The position numbers and the translations under genes are program-made. DNA of 55,634 bases from a virus. Position 1 is the first letter of the stretch. The number at the start of each line of letters is the position of its first letter. The notes under the pieces are model-generated. The model was not told the DNA's origin, did not search any database, and worked only from the letters and a program-made list of their open reading frames with translations. Shown here one piece after another: positions 15,614 through 36,943 of the stretch. The DNA lies in the IMG/VR virus record IMGVR_UViG_3300044796_000576, positions 1-55,634 of that record. One strand, written 5' to 3'.

Positions 15614-15934
15614 TTATTTTTTTACGATGCAGTTGATTTCGGATTCGTGGATCATGCAAAGGTCGTGGCCGTCCACGCTGATTTTGCTGGCGGTGTATTC
15701 ATTAAAAACGACTTCGTCACCGACTTTGACGGTCAGGGGAATGCGGACGTGCATTCCGATAAGTGTTCCCTGTTCAGACACCAGCCCCGGCCCCACGGCG
15801 ACGACGATGCCCTGGGTGGATTTGGTCCGGGCCTGTTCGGGAATGATAATGCCGCCGATTTTTTCCGGGCCAACGGTTGGTTCTATAATCACCCGGTCAT
15901 TGAGGGGTATCAGTTTTTGGTAATTGAATGACAT
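15614..15934 (-). CDS. groES: Phage-encoded co-chaperonin GroES
   Basis: 106 residues, close to the size of bacterial GroES (about 97). 'PLNDRVIIEPTVGPEKIGGI' and 'STQGIVVAVGPG' match the Cpn10 fold. Residues about 22-41 correspond to the mobile loop that docks on GroEL, containing 'GGIIIP'. 'VKVGDEVVFNEY' and the closing 'CIVKK' are also family features. No groEL is present in the window, so it should work with the host GroEL, as T4 gp31 does, to fold a virion protein. Its start lies inside the upstream 81-residue gene (38-nt overlap), and the operon also encodes the putative scaffold, so capsid folding is the likely purpose. Confidence 0.85.
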   Translation of the reverse strand: MSFNYQKLIPLNDRVIIEPTVGPEKIGGIIIPEQARTKSTQGIVVAVGPGLVSEQGTLIGMHVRIPLTVKVGDEVVFNEYTASKISVDGHDLCMIHESEINCIVKK

Positions 15935-19110: not shown

Positions 19111-20424
19111 TTAATCAGCAACCGATGACGGTTCCAACACAATCTCAGGCGCCGGGATTTCGTCGTCGGTGAACTTGATGCCGGCTTCTTGCTCGACGGT
19201 GATCTCGCGCAGGATGTCGGCCAGGGCTTCAACGCTGGCTTCGGCCCCATCGGGCAGGAGGTCGGCTTGTTCGTTCATCTTGCGGGCAACTTCGGTTGGC
19301 GTGTCGCCAGTGGCCACAAGCCAACCGATTTCTTCAATGGGCGGGCCGTCCGATGGAAACCACAATTTGCCATCCAGTTCGCAACAGTCGGACACTTTCA
19401 GCCAGGGTTTGAGTTCGGGCGGACAGATAAACGAGGCCCAAGCGTCCGGTTCACCTTTGATTTTGACCATGCACTCGGCGGAAAATTTGTAACCGTAGTC
19501 AATTTCGACCAGTTCGCCATCAGCACCGTGGTACAGAACGTCAGGGACGTTTTTGGCGCACAGGAAAGAGGCGGTGGAGGGCAAGCCGCCGCGTGTGGTG
19601 GCGTCAATGAAGTAGGCTTCATCGTCGGTAACGCGGACTTCCATTGACCACTGGCCGCTATAATCAACCGAGGCGAGAAACGGCGTGAAGGCATCCAGGA
19701 TATGCGTAAGTTCATCGGGCATTTCCCGTTGGTCGGTGACGGCGGCAAAGTAGGCTTCATCTTTTTTTTCAATGCCGTGCAACATAGTGGCCGGCCAGTG
19801 GCCATGCACGCAGTAAGTGTCGCCGCCGATTTCGAGTTTGGTTTTAATCTGGTCGAACACGAGAAAGGGGACATGTTCCTTCAAGCCGCCCAACCGCACA
19901 GCCCACAGGTCCAATTTTTCGGCATCCTCTTCCCAACTGCGCCAGTGTTTGGTTTCCCAGGAGCCACGCCACAGGGACACTTTGATGTATTGGTCCTTTT
20001 GGTCTTTGAGATAGTCCGCCAACGCGGACAGGCCGCGAATGGCTTTGTAAGGCGGGACTGCCAGGCCAAGCTCGCCAAGTTTTTTCAGAAAAAATTCACG
20101 GTCGAGTTCCAGTTTCATGCCGGCGCCGGTCCCCCAGACGCGGCAGCCTTGGGCGCGCAATTCGGCCTGCAAGCCGGCGTGGTAAATGTCCGGGAACACA
20201 AACAGGTCAATGCCTTTTTTGAGTGGCCAAAAATCGTTGCAGCGGATGATGTCGCCAAAGCCAGCGCCGATGATGCCTTCGTTCAGGACCGGATAACCTT
20301 TTTCCCAGGGCGTGTAGTAGAGGACGCGGCCAAACCCACCGGGCGCGGCCAGCCGGCGGGCGAGCGGCAGGAAAAAGCCGTGGTCGAAAACCAGACAAGT
20401 TTTGTTGGAAAAATCTTCACTCAC
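19111..20424 (-). CDS. ATP-grasp superfamily ligase-like protein
   Basis: 437 residues. The N-terminal ~100 residues look like a pre-ATP-grasp Rossmann-like domain (KTCLVFDHGFFLPLARRL; DLFVFPDIYHAGLQ). A grasp-type ligase core follows, with 'LDREFFLKKLGELGLAVPPY', the nucleotide-clamping 'YIKVSLWRGSWETKHW', and the metal-binding-type strand 'DEAYFIDATTRGGLPST'. The family joins a carboxylate to an amine or thiol through an acyl phosphate; the substrate is unknown here. It is coupled by ATGA to the 125-residue gene and is the last gene of the portal operon. That placement hints at modification of a virion or surface component, but this is inference. Confidence 0.6.
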   Translation of the reverse strand: MSEDFSNKTCLVFDHGFFLPLARRLAAPGGFGRVLYYTPWEKGYPVLNEGIIGAGFGDIIRCNDFWPLKKGIDLFVFPDIYHAGLQAELRAQGCRVWGTGAGMKLELDREFFLKKLGELGLAVPPYKAIRGLSALADYLKDQKDQYIKVSLWRGSWETKHWRSWEEDAEKLDLWAVRLGGLKEHVPFLVFDQIKTKLEIGGDTYCVHGHWPATMLHGIEKKDEAYFAAVTDQREMPDELTHILDAFTPFLASVDYSGQWSMEVRVTDDEAYFIDATTRGGLPSTASFLCAKNVPDVLYHGADGELVEIDYGYKFSAECMVKIKGEPDAWASFICPPELKPWLKVSDCCELDGKLWFPSDGPPIEEIGWLVATGDTPTEVARKMNEQADLLPDGAEASVEALADILREITVEQEAGIKFTDDEIPAPEIVLEPSSVAD

Positions 20425-20798
20425 GGCAACGCTTCAATTTCATCCGCGTATTCTTCCCAATCAACGCCAAGTTCGGCGGCGAACTGGCGTTCGCTGTTGG
20501 TGGCGTGAAAATGTTGCAAGCGGTACGGGGCGGCACGGTCGTCGCCCGGCGCAGTTACATCGTCACGGTCCCGGTTGGCCTCATACGCCTTGTCGAAGTC
20601 ATCCACGGCCTGTTGGGTGACGCCGGCATGTTCGCAGAGGACGGCTTCGTGGAATTCATGGTCGGCGATGAGCATTTCGTAACGCCAGTCAGTCATTTTA
20701 GACACGCGGATTTCCAAATCTTCGCCAACGTAGAACCAGTCACCAGGAGTTGGGTACCGTTGCTCCGCGTGCGGGATGATTTTGATGGTGATGTTCAT
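20421..20798 (-). CDS. Conserved-type phage protein with HEFHE motif
   Basis: 125 residues from the ATG at 20798, chosen because it overlaps the stop of the upstream 53-residue gene (ATGA). The pattern 'PHAEQRYPTPGDW', then 'ADHEFHEAVLCEHAGV', 'VDDFDKAYE' and 'RLQHFHATNSER' belongs to a widespread phage protein type of unknown function. His-Glu-x-x-Glu resembles a degenerate zincin signature, but I see no third ligand clearly enough to call it a protease. Confidence 0.6.
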   Translation of the reverse strand: MNITIKIIPHAEQRYPTPGDWFYVGEDLEIRVSKMTDWRYEMLIADHEFHEAVLCEHAGVTQQAVDDFDKAYEANRDRDDVTAPGDDRAAPYRLQHFHATNSERQFAAELGVDWEEYADEIEALP

Positions 20799-20956
20799 GG
20801 TATTTTGAACTGGTGAAACTTTTTGTCCACTTGCTGTCTGAGCCACGCAATGTCGCGTAACCGGTTATCACCACAAATTATCCACTCGTGATCGGTGATG
20901 GGTTTGCCAAAAACAAGATCGCGGAGTTTTCTGGCTTCCTGAAGCTGGTCATTCAT
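20795..20956 (-). CDS. 53-residue protein coupled to its neighbours
   Basis: The short protein begins MNDQLQEARKLRDLVFGKPI and ends KKFHQFKIP. ATGA overlaps occur at both ends (20953-20956 and 20795-20798), which strongly supports its reality. Single Cys in 'WIICGDNRLRD'. Function unknown. Confidence 0.6.
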   Translation of the reverse strand: MNDQLQEARKLRDLVFGKPITDHEWIICGDNRLRDIAWLRQQVDKKFHQFKIP

Positions 20957-21339
20957 GGCAGGATGTGTTTTTTGCGTTTAGGGGAACGGGCCGCCGTGCT
21001 GGACCCGCCTTCGCTCGGAAGCTTCGGCGCGGCAGGAGCCGGCGTTCCGGGTTTGAGCATTTGCGTTTCGGCCTGGCGTAGTGACGCGGGCACGGGCTGG
21101 GTCACGCGGAAAATCGGCGGATGCAGGGCGAGTGCGCGTTTTTCCAGGGCGCTGGCTGCCTTTGGCGACAACATCGAGCGCCGGACTTGACGGTCAATTT
21201 CGGCGGCGGTGCGGGCCGCGTCAATTTCTTGCGGGGAAAGTTCTATAAATCCCGGCCCCTCACCCCGGCCCTCTCCCCGTTTAGCGGGGAGAGGGGGAAG
21301 AGACGCAGGGGCGTTAATTTCTTGTGGTGTCAGTTCCAT
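20953..21339 (-). CDS. 128-residue Pro/Ala-rich protein carrying a palindrome insertion
   Basis: The start overlaps the portal gene end by 26 nt. Residues about 15-28 are encoded by the 40-bp REP-like palindrome (PPLPAKRGEGRGEGPG). They are flanked by near-duplicate peptides ELTPQEINA and ELSPQEIDA, as if a repeat had been inserted with local duplication without breaking the frame. The rest is basic and Pro/Ser-rich, ending KRKKHILP. Function unknown. Confidence 0.55.
   Translation of the reverse strand: MELTPQEINAPASLPPLPAKRGEGRGEGPGFIELSPQEIDAARTAAEIDRQVRRSMLSPKAASALEKRALALHPPIFRVTQPVPASLRQAETQMLKPGTPAPAAPKLPSEGGSSTAARSPKRKKHILP
21256..21295. repeat. REP-like palindrome, second identical copy
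   Basis: The 40 bp are identical to 19069-19108, with the same 9-bp stem. This copy lies inside the coding region of the 128-residue protein. The style (CCTCACC then a CTCTCCCC/GGGGAGAG stem) is like the extragenic palindromes common in Verrucomicrobiota and other bacterial chromosomes, which suggests acquisition from a host. Confidence 0.75.
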
Positions 21340-23698
21340 ACTCGAACATTTGTTTCATGCGGTCGGCGGCAAGGTCCTGCAAATGCTTTTGGGCGTCCTG
21401 CTGCATCTGTTGCTCGAATTGAATCTGGCGCTGGGCGGTGCGCTGGGCGTGCGATTCGCGCGTGTTGTCGGCTTTGGCCTTGTTGAGCAACATCTGGCCT
21501 TGCAGTTTGGTGGCCGTTTCGGGGTCGAGTCCGCCACCGTTCTGACCTTTTTGTTTCTTGGCGGCTTCGGCGGCGCGTTGCGCAAGGGCTTTGACTTCAT
21601 TCATCAACTTGGCCAGCACGTCCTCGTACTGCTTGACCTTTTCCGCGACGGTATGGTCCGGCGGCACGCCTTTGACGTGCATGGGCTTTTCGTCCTCGGC
21701 CAAGAGGTTGATGTGATTTTTGACGCCGTTGCCTTGCACGGGCTGGCCCTGGATGGTTTCACCGGCCAGGTTTTGCAGGCCGTTAAGTTCTTCGGGCGTG
21801 ATGGGCGTGCCGCGTCCGCCAATGCGCTGGATCGTGACGGTGATGGCCAGCAACAGGCTCTCGACATACTCGGCATGATTGACGCCGTCTTTGAGCGCCA
21901 CGGGCAAACCTTGCAGCATGACGCCGGCAGCGAGTTGCGCATCGTGGATCGAATCGCTGATGACAGGCTGTTCGGGCACGGATTGCCGGGCGAGTTCGTA
22001 ATCGTCGGTGAGATTGGCAAGGCCGGCGCGCAGGAAATGGCGCTGCGCGGACGGGTCGAGCTTGTTGTAATACAGCACCATGATTTTATCCATGATGGCG
22101 GTTTGCAGCATTTTGTTGCCGGCGCCCATGACGCGCACGGGCTGGACGTTCCAGCGTTCAACGTTCAACGCCTCTTCCGGCACGCCAGCGCGCAACACAG
22201 ACAACCGGAATTTGCGCACGTCGGCATCGCGGCTGTTGCGAAGGCAAAAGCGGCGGCAGATTTCGTCGTACTGGAATTTCTGATAATTGTAAGCCTGGCT
22301 GGTCATGCCGCTGACGAGGGCGGCACTGGTATTGATCTTGGCCATCGTGCGGGTGGCGGTTTCGTCCGGGCTGTTTTCCATGTCGAAATCCTGGGTGAAG
22401 GAAGCGGAATTGTCGGCCATGATTTGCCGGTTCTTGACGAGGGCCATTTGCACGAGGGCGGCGTCCACCTGCCAGCGTTCGTCTTTCTTCACAAATTGCA
22501 GGCCATCGGGCAGGGCTTTCTTGTCGGTGAGGTCCACTTTCCAGGCGCGTTCGGCATCGGCAGGATTGGTGATGCGGAAGTACTGCATCAATTGCTCGAA
22601 GGTGGCTTCGTCAAACTTGCAGTTGAGACGGTTTTGCAGGTGACAGATGGAGTACAGCAAAAAGCCCAACGAGCGGACGCTGTGATAACGGAAGGGAGCG
22701 ACACAGGAACAATCGGCAAACTGAAAATGGACGGTCTGGTTGAGCTTGTCGCAATAGACCGGGTTGGCGCGGTCCTCGGAGTCGTAGAGGAATTCGGACT
22801 TGTCAAAGTTCCAAACGCCGTGCTTGCCCGGTTGTTTGGTCGGGCGCGAGTCAATGAGCGCGCCGCCAACACCGCCAACGCCGGGTTCGCCCCAGGCATC
22901 GAGGATGATTTTTTTGCGCCAGCCGGATTGCTTTTCCTGGTCATTCCAATAAAGAAACTCGAAACAATCCACGGTGGGGATGGCGTCGGACGAATAGAGT
23001 CCGCCGTCCTGCTTGATGCGTTCCTCCATTTTTTCAGGCGACCAGACTTCCGGCCAGGATGCGGACATGAGTTGTTTGGCCTGGTCATCCACCCATTTCA
23101 CGCACTTTTCCGCCAACGGCACATTCCAGCCGGGGTCCACTTGGGGGCGATGGGTCATTTCCCAAAGTTCGCGCCCGGTGTATTGGCGGAAGCGGGCGAG
23201 AAAGGGAAGATTTTTGAGCGAGAGCAAAGTATTGGAGGGGACAAGAATATCTTCGACGCCATCGGCTTCGGGACACCAGGCGTAGGCGTCCGGCCAACTG
23301 GCCGGGGCGATGCCATGCAGGACCAGGAGAGCAAAGACACTGCGCCGCGTTTCCATGTATGGCAATGAACCCCGAATGATTTTGTTCAGGTGCGATTGAA
23401 TGAGGCCGGCCCATTCGCGGCGTTGCCAGACGGGACCGTAATCCAACTCGACGGTGAACAGCGGGTCGGGCGTAATGAGGGCGTTGGACAATTGGCGGCG
23501 GGCATTATGCGAAATGTTGGAGAGGGAGAGGTCGTTGTAATTGACGGCGATCTGGTTGGCGGACACTTCGGGCTGCGAGTAAGGAGGCCAGCCGTTGGCC
23601 AGGTTATTGATACGAGCGCGATTTTGAGCGCGGGGCCAGTCGGCGAGCCGCATTTGCCAAACGACTTGCTCGACGGCTTGGGCATGGGTGAATTCCAT
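21314..23698 (-). CDS. Portal (head-tail connector) protein
   Basis: 794 residues. The N-terminal 'RARINNLANGWPPYS' and 'ALITPDPLFTVELD' and the following alpha/beta body fit podovirus-type portals (about 700-800 residues). The C-terminal ~150 residues are a Gln/Ala/Lys-rich coiled coil (KALAQRAAEAAKKQKGQ; HAQRTAQRQIQFEQQMQQDA), as in portal barrel helices. A Cys-rich stretch 'QFADCSCVAPF' is unusual. It is the first gene after a TAACGTTA promoter/operator candidate. Packaging genes (terminase, scaffold) are within 8 kb. Confidence 0.75.
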   Translation of the reverse strand: MEFTHAQAVEQVVWQMRLADWPRAQNRARINNLANGWPPYSQPEVSANQIAVNYNDLSLSNISHNARRQLSNALITPDPLFTVELDYGPVWQRREWAGLIQSHLNKIIRGSLPYMETRRSVFALLVLHGIAPASWPDAYAWCPEADGVEDILVPSNTLLSLKNLPFLARFRQYTGRELWEMTHRPQVDPGWNVPLAEKCVKWVDDQAKQLMSASWPEVWSPEKMEERIKQDGGLYSSDAIPTVDCFEFLYWNDQEKQSGWRKKIILDAWGEPGVGGVGGALIDSRPTKQPGKHGVWNFDKSEFLYDSEDRANPVYCDKLNQTVHFQFADCSCVAPFRYHSVRSLGFLLYSICHLQNRLNCKFDEATFEQLMQYFRITNPADAERAWKVDLTDKKALPDGLQFVKKDERWQVDAALVQMALVKNRQIMADNSASFTQDFDMENSPDETATRTMAKINTSAALVSGMTSQAYNYQKFQYDEICRRFCLRNSRDADVRKFRLSVLRAGVPEEALNVERWNVQPVRVMGAGNKMLQTAIMDKIMVLYYNKLDPSAQRHFLRAGLANLTDDYELARQSVPEQPVISDSIHDAQLAAGVMLQGLPVALKDGVNHAEYVESLLLAITVTIQRIGGRGTPITPEELNGLQNLAGETIQGQPVQGNGVKNHINLLAEDEKPMHVKGVPPDHTVAEKVKQYEDVLAKLMNEVKALAQRAAEAAKKQKGQNGGGLDPETATKLQGQMLLNKAKADNTRESHAQRTAQRQIQFEQQMQQDAQKHLQDLAADRMKQMFEYGTDTTRN

Positions 23699-23703
23699 CC
23701 CTT

Positions 23704-23733
23704 TAACGTTATCGGGGAATGGGTTTGCGTCAA
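23704..23733 (-). promoter_or_regulatory. Candidate promoter with TAACGTTA for the portal operon
   Basis: On the minus strand TTGACG (23733-23728) is followed after 16 nt by TAACGTTA (23711-23704), whose end lies 5 nt before the portal ATG at 23698. If TAACGT is the -10 box, transcription would begin at or next to the start codon. Two hairpins (23735-23749 and 23760-23778) separate it from the upstream gene. Confidence 0.55.
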
Positions 23734-23784
23734 GGCCGTGTAAAACGGCTCCGCGCCGTCACGCGGTTCAGCCGCGTGGTGCTG

Positions 23785-24117
23785 TCAGCACTTTACGCGG
23801 TCCCAACGGAAGCCGGTCAGTTGCTCGCCATCCTGAAAATCAGTGGCCGGCAGGAAGCCGTAACGGGGCAGAACGGTTTTAAGCTGGTCATTCCAAATTT
23901 CCCAAATGCAAATGATGTCGAACTCGGTTTTGGCTTGGGCAATGAACCGGCGAAACTGGCCGGTGCCGGGCTGACTGGTGCCGACAAACAAAATGTCCAA
24001 GCGGGGCGATCTGACTTTAACTAACCCGTCCACGCCGAGCGGTGAGACGAAGCGGCCAAAGCCAGTGCCGAGGGCTTCGCCAACGGGGTCAACCGTGAGC
24101 TTGCCGAGGACGGTCAT
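23785..24117 (-). CDS. 110-residue protein, possible GNAT-like
   Basis: The pattern 'AQAKTEFDIICIWEIWNDQL' then 'VLPRYGFLPATDFQDGEQLTG' recalls the final strands of GNAT acetyltransferases (helix, then 'yGF'). The acetyl-CoA P-loop is not visible, so this is weak. The start is coupled to the upstream gene (ATGA, 24114-24117). It precedes the portal operon and ends the sugar-modification operon. Confidence 0.4.
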   Translation of the reverse strand: MTVLGKLTVDPVGEALGTGFGRFVSPLGVDGLVKVRSPRLDILFVGTSQPGTGQFRRFIAQAKTEFDIICIWEIWNDQLKTVLPRYGFLPATDFQDGEQLTGFRWDRVKC

Positions 24118-24665
24118 GGGGGCAGTAAAGAAACAGTTTCGTGCGGCAGGTAATCGTCAAACTTGAGCGACATAAACTGGTCAATGTCGGCAGATGACAT
24201 GCCTATGTTCGCCCAAAATTCCGTGCGTTCCATGCTGTATTGAGCGCGGACGGTTTTGGCTCCCCGCTTGAAAAGGTCCACGGTGATGTCAGCCAGCCCA
24301 TAGGCCAGGGTGCCGAGGGTTTGAGTTGGAAAGGCAGCGTTGCTGTGCAGGCTGAACGTGGTTTCATTCTCGCCAATGTCCTTCCAGGAGCGCGCGAGTT
24401 TTTGCGGGAATAATTTTTCCTCGTGCAGTTGTTTCAAGGTGACGACATTGGACCACTCGAAACCCCGGCGAACGTCCAACGGCAGGACGGAAAAATGTTG
24501 GTGGTCCGGGGCGGGGCAACGGGATAATTGGAAGCTGAAAACCGCCCGGCCTAAAAACCAGAGTGCGCCGGTTTCAAGCCCGAAGGCAACCCAGGAAAGG
24601 GGCATTTCGGGAGAGATGGCAAAGGTGAATTTGTCCCGGACAACGGAGAAGGTGAAGTTTTCCAT
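24114..24665 (-). CDS. 183-residue protein, unknown
   Basis: A mixed alpha/beta protein with 'FWANIGMSSADIDQFMSL' near the end and 'YGLADITVDLFKRGAKTVRAQY' before it. No motif that I recognise. It lies in the glycosyltransferase/radical SAM operon, ATGA-coupled to the 110-residue gene. A role in the same pathway is only suggested by position. Confidence 0.5.
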   Translation of the reverse strand: MENFTFSVVRDKFTFAISPEMPLSWVAFGLETGALWFLGRAVFSFQLSRCPAPDHQHFSVLPLDVRRGFEWSNVVTLKQLHEEKLFPQKLARSWKDIGENETTFSLHSNAAFPTQTLGTLAYGLADITVDLFKRGAKTVRAQYSMERTEFWANIGMSSADIDQFMSLKFDDYLPHETVSLLPP

Positions 24666-24672
24666 TTATCAG

Positions 24673-24690
24673 AGCCGACTCACGTCGGCT
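24673..24690. repeat. Short palindrome AGCCGAC-TCAC-GTCGGCT
   Basis: A perfect 7-bp stem and 4-nt loop in the 34-nt gap between two operon genes. Similar AGCCGAC/GTCGGCT palindromes are frequent between genes in Verrucomicrobiota genomes as far as I know. It may limit transcription past this point. Confidence 0.45.
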
Positions 24691-24699
24691 GCTACGGGG

Positions 24700-25341
24700 T
24701 TAGATTTCAATGGTATGGAATGGCCAGTTGCTTTTGAGAATGTAGGGGTCGTCTTTGGGGAAATTCCAGTTCTGATCCTCGCGGCCTTCGTGCTGGGGAT
24801 GGAACACGACGCGGGCGGGAGTGAGGTCGTAACAATAGTTCCCGAATTCGGCCATGAAAAAGTTGAGCACCCAATTGTCCCACGCAATGCGGCCCATGCA
24901 AAAGCCTTCCGGGATTTTTTCGGCGGCGGCTTTCCAGACCGTGGGGGTGGCGGCAAAGAAGTCCAACCCCAAGTCCAGGAGCCGGGCGCCGCTGGTGTCG
25001 CCATCGGGCGGCAGGGTGTAACGCCGGCTGACCGCGCAGCCGGCGGGCCGGCTACGCAAGGCATCCTCGACGCGGCGAAAGTTTTGCGGAATGACGATGT
25101 CGGCATTGACGATGCAGGACCAGTCATTCAGCCTGCCGCAAAAGGCGGCGATTTTTTTGATGGACGGTTTGCCGTTGGTGGGCAGGAAAGCGGTGCGCGC
25201 GTCACGCATTCGCGGGTCGGAGTGGTTGAAGTAAAAAATCCGGGGAAAGAGCCGCACCCAAGAACGGTTGGCGGCAATCTGCTTGTCCCAGATACCGGGG
25301 GGACAGCCGTCAAAGGGGCGAAAGGAAGAGACGATAATCAT
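24700..25341 (-). CDS. Glycosyltransferase-like protein
   Basis: 213 residues. 'VSSFRPFDGCPPGIWDKQIAANRSWVRLF' and 'FCGRLNDWSCIVNADIVIPQNF' resemble a GT-A type nucleotide-sugar transferase, with 'NADIVI' in place of the canonical DxD strand. The C-terminal 'WDNWVLNFFMAEFGNYCYDL' is helical. The start ATG lies after 'CCACCACC' without a clear Shine-Dalgarno. It could be a decayed or divergent transferase. It is in an operon with other sugar-transfer candidates. Confidence 0.5.
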   Translation of the reverse strand: MIIVSSFRPFDGCPPGIWDKQIAANRSWVRLFPRIFYFNHSDPRMRDARTAFLPTNGKPSIKKIAAFCGRLNDWSCIVNADIVIPQNFRRVEDALRSRPAGCAVSRRYTLPPDGDTSGARLLDLGLDFFAATPTVWKAAAEKIPEGFCMGRIAWDNWVLNFFMAEFGNYCYDLTPARVVFHPQHEGREDQNWNFPKDDPYILKSNWPFHTIEI

Positions 25342-25369
25342 GGCTGTAATGGTGGTGGAATTGTCGGCT

Positions 25370-26173
25370 TCAAGTCAACCCAAGTTCAGCCAGCATTTGG
25401 AGGGGGACGATGTGTTTTTCCTCGCCAAGAACCCAGATATGCTGGGATTGATCGAGCGCGCCGTGTGACCAGAATTGTTGGACGTGGTTGGGCGGCGCCA
25501 CGCGGTTGGAAAATTGTTCAACCAAATGGTATTGTTCGCGGAATAGTTGCATGGCCACGTTGCCTAGCGTGACGAATTCGCAGAAGCCTTGGGGGTATTC
25601 GTTGCGGCAGGTGCGGACATAGTCGGGCACAGTCCGGCCTGTCTTTTCTTCCATCTGAGCACGCGCGGCGGCGTAAAGGCCGTGATGGTAAATTTCCGGG
25701 TGACACCGCATGGTTTCGTAATGGACAGGGAACGGCAGGCATTTCGTGGTGCATTCCTGCCAGCGGAGGACGCCGGGATGCCGGTAGCCGATGAAATGGA
25801 AATTCTCGAAGCGCAAAATAGGTTTGCCGTCTTTGATGTAAGTGTCGGGCGAGACGGGCGCGGTAAAAACACAGTCGGGGTCAAGGTGGGCAATAAAGTC
25901 GGCACCAGGACAGTGTTGATCGGCGTGCATGACTTGGTTCATGTGCCAAACCATGCCCAAGCTGGGCCATTCGTCGAGAGCCAAACAATGGACAGGAAGG
26001 GCGATTTCGATTCTGGCTTCATCCACCAGTTTTTGCAACAGGTCCAGGTCTTGAGTCGGCACCAAAATTGTGACGCCGGCAAAGCCGGTGGCAAATTTGC
26101 CGATGGAGCGCAGACAGTATTTCAGCCAGGGAAAATCCTTAGCACAGGTGCAGGTAAAAATTCGGGCAGTCAT
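25370..26173 (-). CDS. GT-A-type glycosyltransferase
   Basis: 267 residues from ATG 26173, 1 nt after the radical SAM stop. 'MTARIFTCTCAKDFPWLKYC' opens a GT-A-like fold. 'DFIAHLDPDCVF' is a DxD-type metal and nucleotide-sugar site. 'ENFHFIGYRHPGVLRWQECT' and the His/Cys-rich region 'HYETMRCHPEIYHHGLY' follow. Likely transfers a sugar to a phage or host-surface acceptor; the substrate is unknown. It belongs to the operon with radical SAM and tandem-GT genes. Confidence 0.6.
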   Translation of the reverse strand: MTARIFTCTCAKDFPWLKYCLRSIGKFATGFAGVTILVPTQDLDLLQKLVDEARIEIALPVHCLALDEWPSLGMVWHMNQVMHADQHCPGADFIAHLDPDCVFTAPVSPDTYIKDGKPILRFENFHFIGYRHPGVLRWQECTTKCLPFPVHYETMRCHPEIYHHGLYAAARAQMEEKTGRTVPDYVRTCRNEYPQGFCEFVTLGNVAMQLFREQYHLVEQFSNRVAPPNHVQQFWSHGALDQSQHIWVLGEEKHIVPLQMLAELGLT

Positions 26174-26174
26174 T

Positions 26175-26795
26175 TTAGATTGGTGAGGCTTGGCCAAAAA
26201 CGCATTCGGCGCACGGCAACCGAAGCGATTTAAGATTCTCATGCCAGCCGGTTTTTAAATCAATACCAATGGCACTTTTATATCCCGGCGCGGCACAACA
26301 GCCGTAAACCAAACCGTTCGTCCAATGCGCTCGTGCCTGCCGCCCGCAAGGATGTGCGCCGCGATTATCGGCGAAGGTCAAATGTTTGGCCTTCAATATC
26401 CGCAAGGCGGGATAGTCTGTTTTTAAAAGTTCAATTTTCGCTGTGTTACTCGGACAACCGGGCCAAGCGTCCGGGCCGTAAAGGGTGGCATCAATGGAAT
26501 CAAAGAACCGCAACGCCGCATTGAATTTGGGGTAAAGGGAGGCGTTGGTTTCCAGCCCAAATATGATGGAAGGGAAACGATTTCTGACCATTTCGGCAAT
26601 CTCATTAAATTGCGGGTGGCAGGTTGGTTCACCGCCGGTCAGATTTATTTTTCCAATCCCTTCAAACCAATCAAGCGCCAGTTTGATTTGCTCAAGTGCA
26701 GTGTGGCGGGCAGTGCGCCAAAACATGCCATAAACGCAATGGGGACAAGACATGGTGCAGGCCGTGGTAATAGAAAGGTGCAGTTCCTTATACAT
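26175..26795 (-). CDS. Small radical SAM enzyme
   Basis: 206 residues, shorter than most family members (about 250-400). The [4Fe-4S]-binding CxxxCxxC is C13-C17-C20 (CTMSCPHC), and 'TGGEP' at 53-57 is the SAM-amine contact motif. A second cysteine set, C150, C166/C167, C195 and C198 (AHPCGRQ; YGCCAAP; LPCAEC), may hold an auxiliary cluster, as in SPASM/Twitch enzymes. Such enzymes generate a 5'-deoxyadenosyl radical for peptide, sugar or nucleic-acid modification. The start overlaps the upstream GT gene by 8 nt. Its partners suggest sugar or peptide decoration. Confidence 0.8.
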   Translation of the reverse strand: MYKELHLSITTACTMSCPHCVYGMFWRTARHTALEQIKLALDWFEGIGKINLTGGEPTCHPQFNEIAEMVRNRFPSIIFGLETNASLYPKFNAALRFFDSIDATLYGPDAWPGCPSNTAKIELLKTDYPALRILKAKHLTFADNRGAHPCGRQARAHWTNGLVYGCCAAPGYKSAIGIDLKTGWHENLKSLRLPCAECVFGQASPI

Positions 26796-28233
26796 TATTT
26801 AGCGCGCGTTTTTTAGCACGCAGTTGGTCTATGAGCGAGCCATCTTTGCACCGATGGAAGAGCACGGCGCCCGGCGGCACCCATTGGGCAAGGGATTGGG
26901 GCGAGGAAAAATGCGGGGCGGGGCCGGCGGAAGGATGGAGCGTGCCGTTGACCATGCCCCACCGCGCGCAAAATGACCGGCTGCAATCATGGGTGCGACC
27001 AACTAGGTCCGGGGTCATGTCTGAGTCGAAGGCCGTGCCATAGCCTGCCGCCATCGCGTGTGGCGCACTGTTGGCGAAATTAGCCGGGTAAATGGCGGTG
27101 CCGTTCATGTGGCCCATGCCCGGCACGACCGGCCCCATGATGGGGTGGCCACAGTTCCGATATTCGAGCCAGAGCGAGGACAACCAGTTAGGTTGAAGGG
27201 GAACACAATCCGCCTCGAACCAAAACCAAGGCTGGTGGCAGGCCGCTTGAATATGCAGGGCGGTTGACTGAAAGGCGATGTTGGCAGCATCGGGCCAGTT
27301 TTCGCGCACGGGCCGGGGATAGACAAATTCATGGACGTGGCGGAACGCGCGTTGCGCGGCGGCGCGCAGACGCGACATCCAGGCCGGGCCGAGTGAGGGA
27401 TCATGCGAAAGGAGGCAGTCGAATTGGTTTTGACCGTCCAACTCAACCATCCAGTCCAGACATTTAAGCATCAAGTCCGCGTCTTTGACGCAAACAGGCA
27501 AAACGACCAAGAGCGGCGGCGGCGCGGACAGGCCCGCTTGGTCACGCAATAATTCAATGAGGGTGCCGTCTTTGTTGCGGTGAAAGAGGACCGCTTCCGG
27601 GTCGAACTTGGCCAGGGTGAAGGCGTGGCGGGGCGTGCCGGTTTTGGTAAACCGGAAAGTCGGCGGCAAACCTTGCTGGCCCCAAACCTGTTGAATGAGG
27701 GGAGTATGCTCAACGAAATCTATGGCCGTGCGGGACAGTTGGATGTCGAATGTTTCGGCGACGGGCTTGAAGAAGGCAAAGGCGGTGTCGGGATAAACGG
27801 CAATGCCACTCATCATCGTGGCCGGACAGTCCACGCGGTTACAGGAATAACGGCAGGCGAGAAAATCACTAACCGTGCCGGCGTAGGCTTTTTCCAAAGC
27901 ATCAAGCCAGCCGGCACGGAGCGGGACGGCGTCCGGTTCCAGCCAGAGCCAGCCGTCAATGTTCTGCGTGGAACAATGTTTGGCGGCGGTAAGCCAGAGC
28001 GAATTGCTGCCGGCTATCCAGCCGGTGACGGCCTGACCGTTGGTGATGAATTCCGTGTGGTCGAAACTTTCGCCAGCCAGGGCCACGGCAGTTTTGGCTT
28101 GGGGCCAGGACAAGTCGGCGTCGGCAACAATCAAGGCCGAATGGCCGGGACAGCCGCCGAGTTGTTTGATCCACCGAAGCAGGTTGAACAGCAAAAAAAT
28201 GTCCCCGCCGTGAACTGGTAAAACGCAGGTCAT
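26788..28233 (-). CDS. Tandem-duplicated glycosyltransferase-like protein
   Basis: 481 residues made of two related halves. Half one (1-~240) has 'WLWLEPDAVPLRAGWLDAL' at 95-113 and ends 'VLFHRNKDGTLIELLR' (215-230). Half two has 'WFWFEADCVPLQPNWLSSL' at about 336-354 and ends 'VLFHRCKDGSLIDQLR' near the C-terminus. The E-x-D motifs fit GT-A metal sites. The duplication suggests a bifunctional transferase or a polymerising enzyme. The start at 28233 is fixed by an ATGA overlap. Substrate unknown. Confidence 0.6.
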   Translation of the reverse strand: MTCVLPVHGGDIFLLFNLLRWIKQLGGCPGHSALIVADADLSWPQAKTAVALAGESFDHTEFITNGQAVTGWIAGSNSLWLTAAKHCSTQNIDGWLWLEPDAVPLRAGWLDALEKAYAGTVSDFLACRYSCNRVDCPATMMSGIAVYPDTAFAFFKPVAETFDIQLSRTAIDFVEHTPLIQQVWGQQGLPPTFRFTKTGTPRHAFTLAKFDPEAVLFHRNKDGTLIELLRDQAGLSAPPPLLVVLPVCVKDADLMLKCLDWMVELDGQNQFDCLLSHDPSLGPAWMSRLRAAAQRAFRHVHEFVYPRPVRENWPDAANIAFQSTALHIQAACHQPWFWFEADCVPLQPNWLSSLWLEYRNCGHPIMGPVVPGMGHMNGTAIYPANFANSAPHAMAAGYGTAFDSDMTPDLVGRTHDCSRSFCARWGMVNGTLHPSAGPAPHFSSPQSLAQWVPPGAVLFHRCKDGSLIDQLRAKKRALNNV

Positions 28234-28907
28234 TTGAGAATCCAACAGCGCGGATCAAGTGCTTCCAAAGATTTTGGCGTCAGGTGTTTTTTTATGATGT
28301 CCACCGGGACGTGGACTTTGAGTTTGAGGGGACACAGGCAGGCTTCGCAAATGCCCAGGTTTGCGTCGGAAGGAGTCTTTAATTCCAGTTTTTGGGCGGT
28401 TTCAATCCGGCGGCGGATTGTCTCACTGGCGAACACGGTGAACCAACGGGTCAAATCGCCCAAGCCGTTTTGCGGACAGGTGGCGCAGATGACCGCACGA
28501 GGTTCGGCTTCCGCTGCCGGCACGGTCGGGAAACCTTCGCCCTGCCATTCTTCCAGCAAGACGGCGCCGGCAGACAGTTGCCGGATTTTATCGCCCACAG
28601 CAATGAGCGGCTTTAACAGGCTGGCCGTTTTTTTTGTTTCCAAATGGGTCGGCCCTCCTTTCCGCAGGACATAAACGTCCGCGCCGGGAATGCCCAGGAC
28701 GCGGAGCGCGTTTTGTTGGTCAATGAAGTTGCCAATGGCGACGGGGTCCGTAGCCAGGCCCAGGTGCGGATTGCTGACGGCTATCCCCTGAAACCAGGTG
28801 ACAGCTTCGTTGAAAGACCAAAATTGTTTGGTTTGTTTGACGGGGGCGATGGTGACGACAAATCCGCCGGGCGGACATTCGGTGCGCGATTTTAAACGAA
28901 CAGCCAT
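28230..28907 (-). CDS. Cys-rich protein heading the sugar-modification operon
   Basis: 225 residues from ATG 28907. A more upstream ATG at 29030 would add a low-complexity extension. The C-terminal third has 'AVICATCPQNGLGDLTRWFT' and then 'LGICEACLCPLKLKVHVPVD', two CxxC sites plus a CxC consistent with a zinc site, and ends 'LDPRCWILK'. It resembles phage proteins of unknown function. ATGA-coupled to the tandem glycosyltransferase gene. Confidence 0.5.
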   Translation of the reverse strand: MAVRLKSRTECPPGGFVVTIAPVKQTKQFWSFNEAVTWFQGIAVSNPHLGLATDPVAIGNFIDQQNALRVLGIPGADVYVLRKGGPTHLETKKTASLLKPLIAVGDKIRQLSAGAVLLEEWQGEGFPTVPAAEAEPRAVICATCPQNGLGDLTRWFTVFASETIRRRIETAQKLELKTPSDANLGICEACLCPLKLKVHVPVDIIKKHLTPKSLEALDPRCWILK

Positions 28908-28938: not shown

Positions 28939-29175
28939 TCAAGGCTTGGGGGGCAACTTAAAAAGAAAATAGTCCACGCCTTGGGGCAATCTTTGCCAAT
29001 GGGTCGGGGAATTCGGATTTGGTTTGGCAAACTGGTTTATGAGCGACACCACGCGCTGGCGGTAAGTCTTGCGGGTGAAAATTCCAATAAAGGCTGGGTG
29101 CAGGGAAAAACTCAAATGTAGGGCGCGGTCCTGATCGTCAAAACCAATGGGACTTATCCAGATAACTAGCCAGTT
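28939..29175 (-). pseudogene. Beheaded gene remnant next to the restriction-modification insertion
   Basis: An open frame of 78 codons without ATG: '...GFDDQDRALHLSFSLHPAF', 'IFTRKTYRQRVVSLINQF', ending 'YFLFKLPPKP'. It runs up to the 3' end of the restriction endonuclease gene. Its composition looks like a real protein C-terminus. I infer that the R-M/IS insertion removed the 5' part. Alternatively it starts at a TTG inside and is intact but short. Confidence 0.4.
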
Positions 29176-30164
29176 TTAAAAAGCTCGTCAGACGGCTTCC
29201 ATCCTCTGGCGTAACTGTCCGCCCGTTTAAGCCATTCCTTTATCCGATTTTCCGGCGGCACTTTCTTGCGCCAATACTCCTCAAAAAGAGATTCGTCAAG
29301 GTCGTGGGCCGCCTTGACCATTTCTTTTTCTATCGCCTTCAATGAAGTCAAAATGCGGTTTCCGCCGCGCTGTTTTCCAACCACGCTGCCCGCAGTAAAC
29401 AAGTCCCGTGTTTGCGGACAGAACACGTTTTTGTATTTGAGAAAGAAAAACGCGACATCATTGTATTTTCCCTTTTCCCTAGAACCGCTCACTACTTGGG
29501 GGCACAGCAACGCGCCCTCCGCTCGCAGCCTGGTCTTTTCCCATTTGGGCAGGCTCATATACAGCTTGATTTTGACGGGCAACCCCGGTCCGCTTTCATC
29601 CTCCAGCCACCACAGCATTTCTCCGGGCCGCAATCGCCCGCGAGAGTATTTTCGGATGTGCCACATTTTCTGCTTCGCCGACAGCTTGTAAAATTCGTCG
29701 TAGGAAACGCCCATCGTCTTGAAAAGCGATTTCTTCTTGTCGTCGTCCATTTCCAAAACGAATCGCGGCGCGTGCGAAATGCGAACATGGGTGATTTTTT
29801 CTTCGTATCTACCCCACTTCACAGAAGGCGCACCGCCCATTTTCCCAAAGACGACATAAATCTGCGTCACATCCGGGTCGCGCATTCCTTCAAAGACGCT
29901 GTTGCCGACGCTTTGCCACGAATCTTTGTTTGTGGTTTTAACCTCCACGCCAAACCCATTGGCGCGAATGTCAGGAAACGCATGAGGATTGAAAGTTGGA
30001 TTGATTTCAATGCGCTCGCCTTGGGCGACGGATTTCAGGACTTCAAAAACCCGTTTCTCAAATGCTTCCGGGGAACGGTATTGGGATTGAGGGTCTTGAA
30101 TATCCTTGCCTAACTGTGAGCACGCTTTGTCTAATAACGTCTCAAACTGCGCCAAAGTCATCAT
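29166..30164 (-). CDS. Type II restriction endonuclease (PD-(D/E)xK)
   Basis: 332 residues from the ATG that overlaps the methyltransferase stop (30161-30164). 'FPDIRANGFGVEVKTTNKDSW' holds the catalytic triad Asp65, Glu74 and Lys76 in this numbering. The rest is a Lys-rich alpha/beta protein. Next to and co-transcribed with a C5 methyltransferase, so it should cut the sequence that the methyltransferase protects. The recognition sequence is unknown. Confidence 0.75.
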   Translation of the reverse strand: MMTLAQFETLLDKACSQLGKDIQDPQSQYRSPEAFEKRVFEVLKSVAQGERIEINPTFNPHAFPDIRANGFGVEVKTTNKDSWQSVGNSVFEGMRDPDVTQIYVVFGKMGGAPSVKWGRYEEKITHVRISHAPRFVLEMDDDKKKSLFKTMGVSYDEFYKLSAKQKMWHIRKYSRGRLRPGEMLWWLEDESGPGLPVKIKLYMSLPKWEKTRLRAEGALLCPQVVSGSREKGKYNDVAFFFLKYKNVFCPQTRDLFTAGSVVGKQRGGNRILTSLKAIEKEMVKAAHDLDESLFEEYWRKKVPPENRIKEWLKRADSYARGWKPSDELFKTG

Positions 30165-31162
30165 GTCAGGCAGTCTCTTACCGCCTTCGCAATATGCCAA
30201 GCCAAAACCGGCGGCACAGCGTTCCCGACCTGCCTCTCTGTTTCCCGCAATCCGCCGCTGAAAATGAAGTTATCAGGGAAGGATTGAAATCGCGCCGCTT
30301 CCCGCATGGAGATTCGGCGGTCAAGCTCGTAGTGGAATTGAATGTTGCCGTGGCACTCTGCTCGCATCGTGTCCGCTGGCTTGTCGGCTTTAAGGGTGCG
30401 GTCGCCCTGCTCGCTACTTTTGGCGGCGCGACTCCAAATGTGATTGGTTGCCTTGTTCTCCGGCGCGTTTTTTAAATCGCCCACGGCTTCTTTCGCGGTG
30501 ATCCACGCGGCGGGTGTCACCGTCCCCATTGGCGGGACAAACTTTTTTGTGCGTCCCCGCGTTCCAATGATGAACACGCGCTCGCGCATTTGCGGCACGC
30601 CGTAGTCCGCCGCGAGATAAATATGCGGCACTGGCACATCGTAGCCCAAATCTTTGAACGCGCCAATTATCTCATCGCAAAAATCCTTGTTGACCGGCAT
30701 AAGCAAGCCTTTGACGTTCTCGGCCACAAACACGCGCGGTTGCGTCCGGCGCACGGCCTCGACCATCGCTTTGTAAAGATTCGTCCGCACGCCGTCAGAG
30801 CCTTTCAGAATGCCGTTGATTGAAACGTCCTGACATGGAAAACCGCCGATAACAACGTCGGCGGTTTTTGGCAGCGTGGAAAGAACTTCCCAAACGTCGT
30901 CACAATTTATTTCGTGCTTCAAGTTGGCTTTATACGTTTTGCACGCACTCGGTTTGATGTCGTTCGCCCACACAATGCGATACGGCAGGCGGTCATACAA
31001 CTTGCCTAGAAACTTGAAGCCGCCAAGAAACCCCATGTCCAGCCCGCCGCAACCGGAGAAAAGCGAAACGACGGAAAACTCGTTCGGAATTTTCTTTCCG
31101 GCGACAGCCGCCGCAATCTGCCCGAAACTGGCGGGCAGCGGTTGAATCAGCATCTTTGTCAT
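30161..31162 (-). CDS. DNA cytosine-5 methyltransferase (R-M system)
   Basis: 333 residues with all classical motifs: I 'SLFSGCGGLDMGF', IV 'GGFPCQDVS' with the catalytic Cys, VI 'ENVKGL', VIII 'QMRERVFIIG', IX 'RRISMREAARFQSFPDNF' and X 'QVGNAVPPVLA'. The target-recognition region lies about 215-270. It methylates cytosine in a specific site, protecting DNA from the partner nuclease. The start is overlapped by the small zinc-ribbon gene. An R-M pair carried by a phage may defend the lysogen against other phages or stabilise the element. Confidence 0.88.
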   Translation of the reverse strand: MTKMLIQPLPASFGQIAAAVAGKKIPNEFSVVSLFSGCGGLDMGFLGGFKFLGKLYDRLPYRIVWANDIKPSACKTYKANLKHEINCDDVWEVLSTLPKTADVVIGGFPCQDVSINGILKGSDGVRTNLYKAMVEAVRRTQPRVFVAENVKGLLMPVNKDFCDEIIGAFKDLGYDVPVPHIYLAADYGVPQMRERVFIIGTRGRTKKFVPPMGTVTPAAWITAKEAVGDLKNAPENKATNHIWSRAAKSSEQGDRTLKADKPADTMRAECHGNIQFHYELDRRISMREAARFQSFPDNFIFSGGLRETERQVGNAVPPVLAWHIAKAVRDCLT

Positions 31163-32610: not shown

Positions 32611-33389
32611 GCGCGGACTTGGGACAGGTTGGGGGCTTGGGCCGGGACATGAACTTGCAGGGAAGCGATGTCGCGCATTTTTTGCATTGCGGCTTCGACA
32701 TTATTATCCACGGTAAAAATGCGCTTATGAGGCCAACCCGCCATTGCCGTTTTCCAATACACGCCGCCAATGGCATTTTTCATAAAAACGACATAGTCAC
32801 AACTGACGGGGATGGCACCGCCCCGGTGTGCAATGTCCACGCCGCGAAGTTCGATCTCAATTTTGCTTCGTTCCACTTGTTCCTGAAGTTGAGAGAACAC
32901 TTTCAATTCAACGTGGCAAAAGGCGACCCGCACCAGACGTTTCTTTTCCAGGGACGCGACGGCCAGCATGGAGATTGACGCGGGGGCGGCTTTGGCCGTG
33001 GCGGAATGAACTTCGCTGCCATTGTTCACACGCAAGCCGCTAAGTCCTTTGATGATGCGGTCGGTTAATATGGCTGCCAAGGTTGGGGTGTCCAGCCGAT
33101 TGGCCAGTTCGATATAGTCAACGGGTTTTTCGACCGGGATTTCAATAATCTGCGGCGGTAGCGGTTCAGCCAGAAGCGCCTTGGCATAAAGCGCCTTGAT
33201 TCGTTCTTTCAGCAAAGGCACGACATTGACAGAAGCTAATGCCCGGTGCTTGTCATCGGTCAGACATTCTTCCTGTGATTTAGTCAACAATGGTCGGACG
33301 GTAATAAACGGGTCTTTGCTGCGAAGCCTGACAAAAGCTGCGGCCAGGCTTTCGATTTCATCTTCATTCCATTTGATTCGTGTTTTCAT
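32607..33389 (-). CDS. Protein with W-rich N-terminus and possible DUF2325-like C-terminus
   Basis: 260 residues from ATG 33389, chosen for the 4-nt overlap with fic. The N-terminal 'IKWNEDEIESLAAAFVRLR' has a SANT/Myb-like helix character. The C-terminal ~90 residues ('VRVAFCHVELKVFSQLQEQV', 'GVDIAHRGGAIPVSCDYVVF', 'VYWKTAMAGWPHKRIFTVD') recall the DUF2325 nucleotide-type fold. Both assignments are tentative. The role may be regulatory. It sits between Fic and the unknown 139-residue protein. Confidence 0.45.
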   Translation of the reverse strand: MKTRIKWNEDEIESLAAAFVRLRSKDPFITVRPLLTKSQEECLTDDKHRALASVNVVPLLKERIKALYAKALLAEPLPPQIIEIPVEKPVDYIELANRLDTPTLAAILTDRIIKGLSGLRVNNGSEVHSATAKAAPASISMLAVASLEKKRLVRVAFCHVELKVFSQLQEQVERSKIEIELRGVDIAHRGGAIPVSCDYVVFMKNAIGGVYWKTAMAGWPHKRIFTVDNNVEAAMQKMRDIASLQVHVPAQAPNLSQVRA

Positions 33390-33856
33390 AGTGGTGGTAT
33401 GTGATTCAGTGCGGAGAGGGTTTGATAGTAAAAGGTATGCAGGAAACCGAGGGGGAATTGTCTCATTTGCCAGGCCCATAACATTCGTCCTGAACGGCCA
33501 TTGCCGTCTGTAAAGGGGTGCAATAGCTCGTAGGCGATGTGAGAGGCAAAGGCGGTGTCGGTAACTACCGGGGTAATGACAAGGGGGCGTTCCAGGCGGG
33601 AAAGCAGGCCGGTGAGTTGTTCGCGGATCGCCGGCCCGCCTCTGGCGGCAATCCGCCCGCCGATGACAACGTCCAAGCCGGGTTTGTCGCGCAATCTCGC
33701 ACCGGGCTGATAAATTTTTACAAATCGTTCCAGGTCATGCACGGTGACTGTTTCCAGGCCCATGAAGCGGTGACACTCGGCAATCTCGGCGGTGGTGGGT
33801 TGGCGCAGGATGCCTTCGATGGCATTGCTTTCGGCGATAAAGGTTTTGGCGTCCAT
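33386..33856 (-). CDS. fic: Fic-domain AMP-transferase (autoinhibited type)
   Basis: 156 residues. The Fic core motif is complete at His113-Arg124 (HPFTDGNGRSGR), where His113 is the catalytic base. The N-terminal 'ESNAIEGI' matches the inhibitory helix [S/T]xxxE[G/N] (Ser10, Glu14, Gly15), so activity is probably held in check by its own Glu. The family transfers AMP (or another nucleotide part) to hydroxyls on proteins. In a phage it could target a host protein or act as a lysogen toxin. A 124-nt hairpin precedes the gene. Confidence 0.8.
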   Translation of the reverse strand: MDAKTFIAESNAIEGILRQPTTAEIAECHRFMGLETVTVHDLERFVKIYQPGARLRDKPGLDVVIGGRIAARGGPAIREQLTGLLSRLERPLVITPVVTDTAFASHIAYELLHPFTDGNGRSGRMLWAWQMRQFPLGFLHTFYYQTLSALNHIPPL

Positions 33857-36496: not shown

Positions 36497-36540
36497 CGGT
36501 CGGTTATCGTCCGGTTATCGTCCGGTTAAGTCCGGCTCTG
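36495..36540. repeat. Tandem repeat of CCGGTTATCGT
   Basis: About 3.5 near-copies of an 11-bp unit (TCCGGTCGGTTATCGT, CCGGTTATCGT, CCGGTTAAGTCCGG) at the end of the SymE-like gene. Significance unknown. Confidence 0.45.
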
Positions 36541-36943
36541 AATGTTCGCAAGGCTGAAAGTTCGTATTGTATTGCTGGCGGGATTGGCACGCCGGCCTTG
36601 CGCAGTTGCCGTTTAATTGCACGCCGTTTGCCTGCCGCCCCGCGCGGTCTGCTGCCAGTGCATGGTCAAGGCGCATGGCCGCAATTTGGAATTCTTTTGA
36701 CGGTGCCGGACTGTCACAAAGCCGGATTTCGAGCACGCCCGGACTGATTGCTGTTAACTCAACGGATTGGCCAGCATCAAAACCAAGTTTGTGAAGCCAT
36801 TGGCCTTTCAGCCGAATGGTTGACGCGGGCGCGGGGTGATATTTCGCGGCGGGATTGAATGGTTCAACTTTTAAAGTGCGCTTCGATGTGGGCTTGCCGT
36901 GGTGTGGCGCTTTGATCAGGAACGGGGCGTCTTGTATTTTCAT
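36515..36943 (-). CDS. SymE-like (AbrB-fold) protein
   Basis: 142 residues from ATG 36943. Residues about 40-80 ('STIRLKGQWLHKLGFDAGQS', then 'VELTAISPGVLEIRL') match the SymE/AbrB swapped-hairpin type, in which a toxin-like RNA-associated protein or transcription factor is encoded. The C-terminal extension is Gln/Asn-rich and may be a lineage-specific tail. It lies divergent from the integrase gene. It could be a repressor-like or toxin-like lysogeny gene. Confidence 0.6.
   Translation of the reverse strand: MKIQDAPFLIKAPHHGKPTSKRTLKVEPFNPAAKYHPAPASTIRLKGQWLHKLGFDAGQSVELTAISPGVLEIRLCDSPAPSKEFQIAAMRLDHALAADRAGRQANGVQLNGNCARPACQSRQQYNTNFQPCEHSEPDLTGR

What the first reader, a model, noticed from the sequence alone, without database searches (positions are those of the whole stretch)
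19111..28907. Glycosyltransferase, radical SAM and ATP-grasp genes grouped around the portal
One operon (23785-28907) carries two GT-A-like transferases, a tandem-duplicated transferase, a 206-residue radical SAM enzyme with extra cysteines, a Cys-rich protein and a GNAT-like protein. The next operon ends with an ATP-grasp ligase. This combination is reminiscent of peptide or surface-glycan decoration pathways and is not a standard phage module. It may modify a virion protein, a host surface glycan (superinfection exclusion) or a small peptide. The motifs are visible; the pathway is inference.
Basis: partly seen in the sequence, partly recalled or inferred. Interest (0 to 1): 0.78.

Follow-up and report, generated by a model that had tools for sequence, protein, structure and literature searches.

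The report
Swappable sugar-coat genes in phage
An uncultured phage family carries, wedged among its head-building genes, a small set of sugar-attaching enzymes whose middle part is exchanged from phage to phage, which probably lets the phages vary a sugar decoration, most likely on their own particles; the neighbouring ATP-grasp gene is real but belongs to something else.

Summary
The genes are there, at the stated place. On the minus strand, between a Cys-rich head-module gene (28230-28907) and the portal (21314-23698), lie a tandem-duplicated GT-A-type transferase, a 206-aa radical SAM (rSAM) enzyme with a twitch-type auxiliary four-Cys motif, two more putative transferases and two small genes. 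An ATP-grasp enzyme (19111-20424) follows the portal. Comparison with about 40 uncultivated relatives splits the finding in two. (1) The interval is a glycan-assembly island: its three transferases keep their order beside the portal down to 31-44% identity. The slot between them is swapped: other transferases, O-/C-methyltransferases (FkbM, TylF, rhamnosyl-MT type) and unrelated rSAMs. Genes downstream of the portal in the same phages show no such enzymes. (2) The ATP-grasp is well supported by a structure model but is dissociated from the island in both directions: it occurs in phages without these transferases and is missing from two phages that have them, so it is not part of the pathway. 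Best reading: a late, cytoplasmic pathway that builds and tailors a variable glycan, most likely on a virion protein (about 0.5); host-surface modification is the main rival. The target is inference. New variant of a known kind, with no homologue in 50,697 named phages.

The parts
28230..28907 (-). Cys-rich head-module protein (225 aa, four conserved Cys near the C-terminus); left border of the island, not part of the glycan pathway
   Evidence: Alignment of 7 homologues, 40-81% identity; in L030 its C-terminal part is a separate gene between terminase and portal in a phage without island
26788..28245 (-). Tandem-duplicated GT-A-type glycosyltransferase (about 480 aa; start at 28245 or 28230); ExD and HRxKDGxL in both halves
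   Evidence: Halves homologous, E 5e-21; invariant E98/D100 and E339/D341; Foldseek hits all GT-A, low-confidence model; in 7 of 19 records
26175..26795 (-). Short radical SAM enzyme (206 aa) with twitch-type auxiliary Cys motif; variable-slot gene
   Evidence: PF04055 E 1e-11; C13-C17-C20 plus C150/C166/C195/C198 invariant in 5 phage rSAMs; rSAM in 6 of 19 records, one copy each
25370..26173 (-). GT-A-like transferase of the DUF6492 type (267 aa)
   Evidence: DUF6492 1.6e-4; relatives also weakly hit Stealth_CR2 and GT8; DxD invariant in 13 sequences
24700..25341 (-). Putative third transferase (213 aa), tightly conserved next to the portal
   Evidence: 78-85% identity in close relatives; in 8 of 19 records; no profile or PDB match, so transferase by context and motif only
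24114..24665 (-). Unknown protein (183 aa), not conserved in the relatives examined; may be a variable-slot gene
   Evidence: No homologue in related loci, no Pfam or PHROG family
23785..24117 (-).
   Evidence: 65-76% identity in L003 and L004; no Pfam or PHROG hit
21314..23698 (-). Portal-like protein (794 aa); right border of the island
   Evidence: 48-89% identity in related phages, always downstream of the island; called portal from size, position and sequence character, no Pfam hit
20421..20846 (-). Small protein (141 aa) that travels with the ATP-grasp gene
   Evidence: Adjacent to the ATP-grasp in many loci, including some without this portal nearby
19111..20424 (-). ATP-grasp ligase-type enzyme (437 aa), separate from the glycan cassette
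   Evidence: Model and Foldseek; invariant catalytic residues; 40 viral loci; absent from G014/G015

Best explanation
Two neighbouring but independent things. (A) The interval between the Cys-rich gene and the portal is a glycan-assembly and tailoring island placed at a fixed site in the head-gene cluster. A stable core (duplicated transferase, DUF6492-type transferase, and the 213-aa putative transferase next to the portal) transfers host NDP-sugars in the cytoplasm. Exchangeable genes between them (here a twitch-type rSAM; elsewhere other transferases, O-/C-methyltransferases or other rSAMs) tailor the sugars by oxidation, epimerisation or methylation. Lying among head genes, with no flippase, polymerase or other multi-spanning membrane protein, it most likely decorates a virion protein during assembly, so that related phages differ in glycan type. 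(B) The ATP-grasp enzyme with its small partner gene is a separate insertion between portal and scaffold genes that probably ligates an amino acid or similar group onto a virion protein or small molecule. Shown: gene content, conserved order, turnover, dissociation of A and B, ATP-grasp fold, rSAM motifs. Inferred: transferase activity of 24700, sugar chemistry of the rSAM, late expression, virion target.
For: The core keeps its order beside the portal in L002-L005 (63-85% identity) and in L056/L058 (31-44%). In 13 relatives with a Cys-rich-to-portal interval, 56 variable proteins give Methyltransf_24 in 10, Glyco_tranf_2_4 in 7, DUF5672 in 4, rSAM in 4, plus TylF, FkbM, rhamnosyl-MT, Methyltransf_13/14, PLOD-type GT, GT9 and a cytidylyltransferase. 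59 proteins downstream of the portal in the same phages give none of these (at least about 25 of 56 against 0 of 59, nominal p 4e-10, sequences not independent). rSAM is in 6 of 19 records, one copy each, in the island wherever I placed it. L004's rSAM matches PDB 7wzv over its full length, E 1.4e-34. Only one or two hydrophobic peaks per protein at most, no multi-spanning protein, in 100 island proteins. ATP-grasp and island dissociate both ways.
Against: No acceptor site or acceptor protein was identified. The window itself lacks an island methyltransferase, and its own rSAM is only distantly related to 7wzv (E 0.97 alone). 24700 and 23785 have no profile support. Published interpretations of similar islands favour host O-chain modification. 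Late expression is inferred from position, not measured.
Confidence: 0.5

Rival explanations
1. The island alters the host cell-surface glycan (O-chain or capsule) to block superinfection or to help the phage, as proposed for cyanophage and pelagimyophage islands.
For: Similar mixtures of transferases, sugar enzymes and rSAM cassettes in structural-region islands of pelagimyophages are read this way (PMC7029224; PMC7824862). The window has a tyrosine-recombinase-like ORF on the + strand around 37250-38476, so a temperate phase is possible. Cytoplasmic transferases could act on lipid-linked host intermediates.
Against: No flippase, polymerase or multi-spanning protein in the islands; NDP-sugar epimerase genes are rare in the relatives and absent from the window; placement beside the portal suggests late expression, when exclusion is of little use; integrase in only 3 of 19 records, 2 above cut-off.
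Confidence: 0.3
2. The transferases glycosylate hypermodified phage DNA bases, as in T4.
For: A phage-encoded DNA C5-methyltransferase lies nearby (30161-31162), so the phage does modify its DNA.
Against: No thymidylate-synthase-type or hydroxymethylase enzyme in any of 19 records; sugar O-methyltransferases and glycoprotein-type GTs (PLOD-type) do not fit; the island swaps content between close relatives.
Confidence: 0.05
3. Transferases, rSAM and ATP-grasp form one peptide or small-molecule (RiPP-like) pathway.
For: rSAM and ATP-grasp enzymes both occur in peptide-modification pathways, and they lie within 8 kb here.
Against: ATP-grasp dissociates from the island in both directions; no NCBIfam peptide-maturase family reaches cut-off; no small precursor gene recognised; the slot is filled with sugar-type methyltransferases and transferases.
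Confidence: 0.06
4. The island is a passive hotspot for unrelated cargo genes, and the resemblance to a pathway is accidental.
For: High turnover; several small genes of unknown function; similar insertions are common in phages.
Against: The content is strongly restricted to sugar-type enzymes compared with genes downstream of the portal, and the core transferases keep order and neighbourhood over large divergence.
Confidence: 0.09

Closest known systems
Hypervariable 'host recognition cluster' of pelagimyophages (PMC7029224) and the GT/LPS clusters of cyanophages such as P-SSM2 (PMC7824862)
   Same: Variable island inside the structural region with several glycosyltransferases, gained or lost rSAM cassettes (pelagimyophages), and turnover between related phages
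   Different: Those are T4-like with islands of about 35-45 kb next to tail fibres and often with NDP-sugar enzymes; here a 3-8 kb island between a Cys-rich head gene and the portal, with a fixed transferase core and no tail fibres, in a lineage without a named relative
Virion glycosylation by phage glycosyltransferases in mycobacteriophage Che8 and relatives (Freeman et al. 2023, as cited in PMC11256854)
   Same: Phage-encoded transferases that put glycans on capsid proteins; the proposed function here
   Different: In the related phage Maravista the genes lie near the 3' end of the genome, and for Che8 the modification is shown experimentally; here the genes lie among head genes and nothing is shown
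PDB 7wzv (listed only as '4Fe-4S cluster-binding domain-containing protein'; from memory the twitch rSAM dehydrogenase SpeY of spectinomycin biosynthesis, not verified here)
   Same: Full-length homologue of the island rSAM of L004 (E 1.4e-34), with an auxiliary-cluster Cys motif
   Different: The window's rSAM is much shorter (206 aa) and only distantly related (E 0.97 alone)
ATP-grasp enzymes of the GAR synthetase / biotin carboxylase type
   Same: Fold and metal-binding residues of 19111-20424
   Different: No curated family matches above cut-off; nearly all relatives found are in phages, mostly beside portal or virion genes, substrate unknown

Membership tests
ATP-grasp superfamily (19111-20424) | ATP-grasp fold | tested here: met
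   AF2 model pLDDT 85, pTM 0.86; the top 50 PDB matches are all ATP-grasp enzymes, E down to 1.7e-18, TM about 0.6
ATP-grasp superfamily (19111-20424) | Metal-binding acidic pair and Arg in the C-terminal subdomain, ATP-binding Lys | tested here: met
   K148, E198, E262, D274 and R278 invariant in 9 sequences of 32-100% identity; E to D spacing of 12 as in biotin carboxylase (recalled)
ATP-grasp superfamily (19111-20424) | Curated profile match | tested here: not met
   No Pfam family; NCBIfam PurK-type only at 15 bits against a cut-off of 327
Radical SAM superfamily (26175-26795) | CxxxCxxC and Radical_SAM profile above cut-off | tested here: met
   PF04055 45.8 bits against 29.5; C13, C17, C20
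Twitch/SPASM-type rSAM | Auxiliary Cys motif C-x9-15-G-x4-C followed by C-x2-C | tested here: met
   C150-x10-G161-x4-C166 ... C195-x2-C198, invariant in 5 phage rSAMs; full seven-Cys SPASM not present; cluster binding not tested
Peptide-modifying rSAM (RiPP maturases) | Match to a maturase family plus a precursor peptide | tested here: not met
   All NCBIfam matches far below cut-off; no precursor recognised, although small ORFs were not searched exhaustively
GT-A glycosyltransferases (26788-28245 and 25370-26173) | GT-A fold | tested here: inconclusive
   All leading Foldseek hits are GT-A enzymes (LH3, COLGALT1, glycogenin), E about 1e-4, but model pLDDT is 49; 25370 not modelled
GT-A glycosyltransferases (26788-28245 and 25370-26173) | Conserved DxD/ExD motif | tested here: met
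   D98/D100 invariant in 13 homologues of 25370; E98/D100 and E339/D341 invariant in 6 homologues of 26788 (duplicate shown)
GT-A glycosyltransferases (24700-25341) | Profile or fold evidence | tested here: not met
   No Pfam or PDB match; hhalign to GT families negative
Phage virion-glycosylation systems (Che8 type) | Glycans on virion proteins | not testable with these tools
   Needs virions and mass spectrometry
Host O-antigen-modifying phage systems (Gtr type) | Membrane flippase and multi-spanning transferase | tested here: not met
   No multi-spanning protein among window or relative island proteins by a hydropathy scan

The most novel reading that the evidence does not exclude
A glycan-type switching system: a portal-linked transferase core with an exchangeable tailoring slot, in which a twitch radical SAM enzyme oxidises or epimerises sugars on the glycans of phage particles, giving each phage a different particle 'serotype'. 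Radical-SAM sugar tailoring of a virion glycan would be a chemistry I know of in no phage.
Probability: 0.3. Interest if true: 0.75.

Novelty: new variant of a known kind. Interest (0 to 1): 0.52.

Why it matters
It shows that variable glycan islands, known mainly from large T4-like phages, also exist as a compact 3-8 kb cassette with a stable core at a fixed site in the head-gene cluster of mid-size phages, in a lineage with no cultured relative. If the glycans are on virions, these phages offer a natural series of decorations to test what particle glycans do for phages outside animals, and a source of small sugar-modifying radical SAM enzymes. The separate ATP-grasp family, tied to portal genes in many phages, is an unexplained virion-linked ligase that should be studied on its own.

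Tried and rejected
Single pathway with the ATP-grasp: rejected by two-way dissociation. Cys-rich gene as pathway member: rejected, it is present next to the portal without an island. Collagen-like acceptor: suggested by PLOD-type GTs and LH3/COLGALT1 fold hits; the window has only six GXY triplets in 12681-13475, and phages without an island have such stretches too, so this was dropped. DNA glucosylation: no thymidylate-synthase-type enzyme. Direct search for the window rSAM in viral contigs found no relative; relatives appeared only through neighbourhood. Structure of the duplicated transferase was poor with 6 sequences. Profile comparison of the transferases with other island GTs was negative, perhaps because the profiles are shallow. 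Promoter and terminator scans were near chance. Named phages: no match for the four proteins tried. The genome collection gave only two ATP-grasp contigs, one in an Acidobacteria bin and one in Bradyrhizobium, so the host stays unknown and 'Verrucomicrobiota' was not tested. Literature look-ups for 7wzv failed.
Full report
WHAT IS THERE. The window is an uncultivated virus record of 55,634 bases. On the minus strand, from 28907 down to 19111, the genes are contiguous or overlap, with no gap above about 90 bases: Cys-rich protein (28230-28907), duplicated transferase (26788-28245), radical SAM enzyme (26175-26795), DUF6492-type transferase (25370-26173; the ATG follows the rSAM stop directly), 213-aa putative transferase (24700-25341), unknown (24114-24665), small conserved protein (23785-24117), portal-like protein (21314-23698), two or three small genes, and the ATP-grasp enzyme (19111-20424).

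IDENTITY OF THE GENES. The rSAM is secure by profile, and its extra cysteines follow the twitch/SPASM-half pattern, invariant in five phage rSAMs, the other four being 17-24% identical to the window's. The internal duplication of the 480-aa transferase is secure (E 5e-21); each half carries an ExD motif and a C-terminal HRxKDGxL, invariant or nearly so in relatives down to 34% identity. Its model is poor (pLDDT 49), but every leading PDB match is a GT-A enzyme; I take this as supporting, not proving. The 25370 protein belongs near DUF6492, with faint links to Stealth and GT8 families through relatives and an invariant DxD. The 24700 protein has no independent support as a transferase. The GNAT call for 23785 is not confirmed. 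The ATP-grasp call, which has no Pfam match, is confirmed by structure and conserved catalytic positions.

COMPARISON WITH RELATIVES. Portal searches gave phages at 83-89% and about 48% identity, and an ATP-grasp profile gave 40 loci. In the close relatives the three putative transferases, the Cys-rich protein, portal and ATP-grasp are all present and in order, while the window's rSAM is not conserved. The other phages carry, between the core transferases, different rSAMs, further transferases and methyltransferases; the position of the rSAM within the island also differs (between the first two core genes here, after the second in L002 and L004). Two more distant phages, L056 and L058, keep duplicated transferase, 25370-type, 24700-type and portal in that order at 31-44% identity. 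Across 19 records the duplicated transferase is in 7, the 24700 family in 8, Methyltransf_24 in 12, rSAM in 6. Proteins downstream of the portal in the same phages served as a control and contain no transferase, sugar-type methyltransferase or rSAM.

THE ATP-GRASP IS SEPARATE. In a second group of phages (for example L020, L023, L030, L044) the ATP-grasp sits beside a related portal without the island; a Pfam scan of 103 proteins around such ATP-grasp genes listed no glycosyltransferase family among the 25 best-ranked of 47, one rSAM and one methyltransferase (the lower-ranked families are not shown). G018 of this set does carry two Methyltransf_24 genes and an epimerase about 14 kb away from its ATP-grasp, so sugar genes are not wholly absent there. 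Conversely G014 and G015 (L056, L058) have the transferase core but no ATP-grasp anywhere in 56-57 kb, and their portal is followed directly by the 17425-type and scaffold-like genes. The two features are neighbours, not one pathway. The same comparison shows that the Cys-rich gene is a head-module gene, since in L030 it lies between terminase and portal with no island.

HOW IT MOST LIKELY WORKS. Inference from content and place: host NDP-sugars are transferred in the cytoplasm by the core enzymes onto an acceptor; slot enzymes then tailor the sugars. The rSAM of L004 has a full-length solved homologue, 7wzv (E 1.4e-34; also the best match of the five-rSAM profile), which from memory is SpeY, an rSAM that oxidises a sugar hydroxyl; I could not verify this in the library. 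No multi-spanning membrane protein occurs in the islands, which argues against a Gtr-like surface system, and the genes sit among head genes. This favours a virion protein as target, but no acceptor is known. Host-surface modification, the published reading for analogous islands, remains the main rival.

CAVEATS. The relatives were found by searches for genes of this window, so co-occurrence counts are not random samples, and related sequences are not independent. Gene calls in relatives are mechanical: an rSAM in the L003 record was missed by my gene picking and found. The records may be fragments of unknown completeness, so absences are weaker than presences, although for G014/G015 the exact place where the ATP-grasp should be was inspected.

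Noticed in passing
window 29166-31162, - strand: C5-cytosine DNA methyltransferase (PF00145, E 1e-63) overlapping a 344-aa gene that reads like a restriction endonuclease (EVKTT motif): probable type II restriction-modification pair carried by the phage.
   Followed up: partly
window 15614-15934, - strand: A 106-aa protein that reads like a GroES co-chaperonin, between scaffold-like gene and terminase, conserved in relatives.
   Followed up: no
window 13535-15337, + strand: Large terminase on the strand opposite to the surrounding late genes, in the window and in close relatives, while in L007, L030 and L055 it lies just before the Cys-rich gene: the terminase seems to have been relocated and inverted.
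   Followed up: partly
L020 3958-6699 (+) and L002 18374-21103 (-): Terminase genes enlarged by an insertion; L020 reads like an intein, and the control set that includes the L002 terminase gave one Intein_splicing and one Hint match.
   Followed up: partly
window 37250-38476, + strand: Tyrosine-recombinase-like ORF just above the Pfam cut-off, on the opposite strand; a similar one in the L004 record.
   Followed up: no
window 33386-33856 and 36515-37033, - strand: Fic/DOC-like and SymE-like proteins (weak Pfam matches).
   Followed up: no
window 20421-20846, - strand: Small protein with a conserved His/Glu-rich stretch (HEFHEA) that accompanies the ATP-grasp gene in many distant phages, sometimes on the opposite strand; may be its functional partner.
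   Followed up: partly
window 12681-13475, - strand: Structural-type protein with a short collagen-like stretch (GPPGTNGTDGADGAPGLN); homologues in several relatives have it too.
   Followed up: yes
L031, L036, L040 islands: More distant relatives have wholly different island contents (DUF5672 and other GTs, several methyltransferases, 356-361-aa rSAMs in L031 and L033), so the site, not the genes, is the widest conserved feature.
   Followed up: partly
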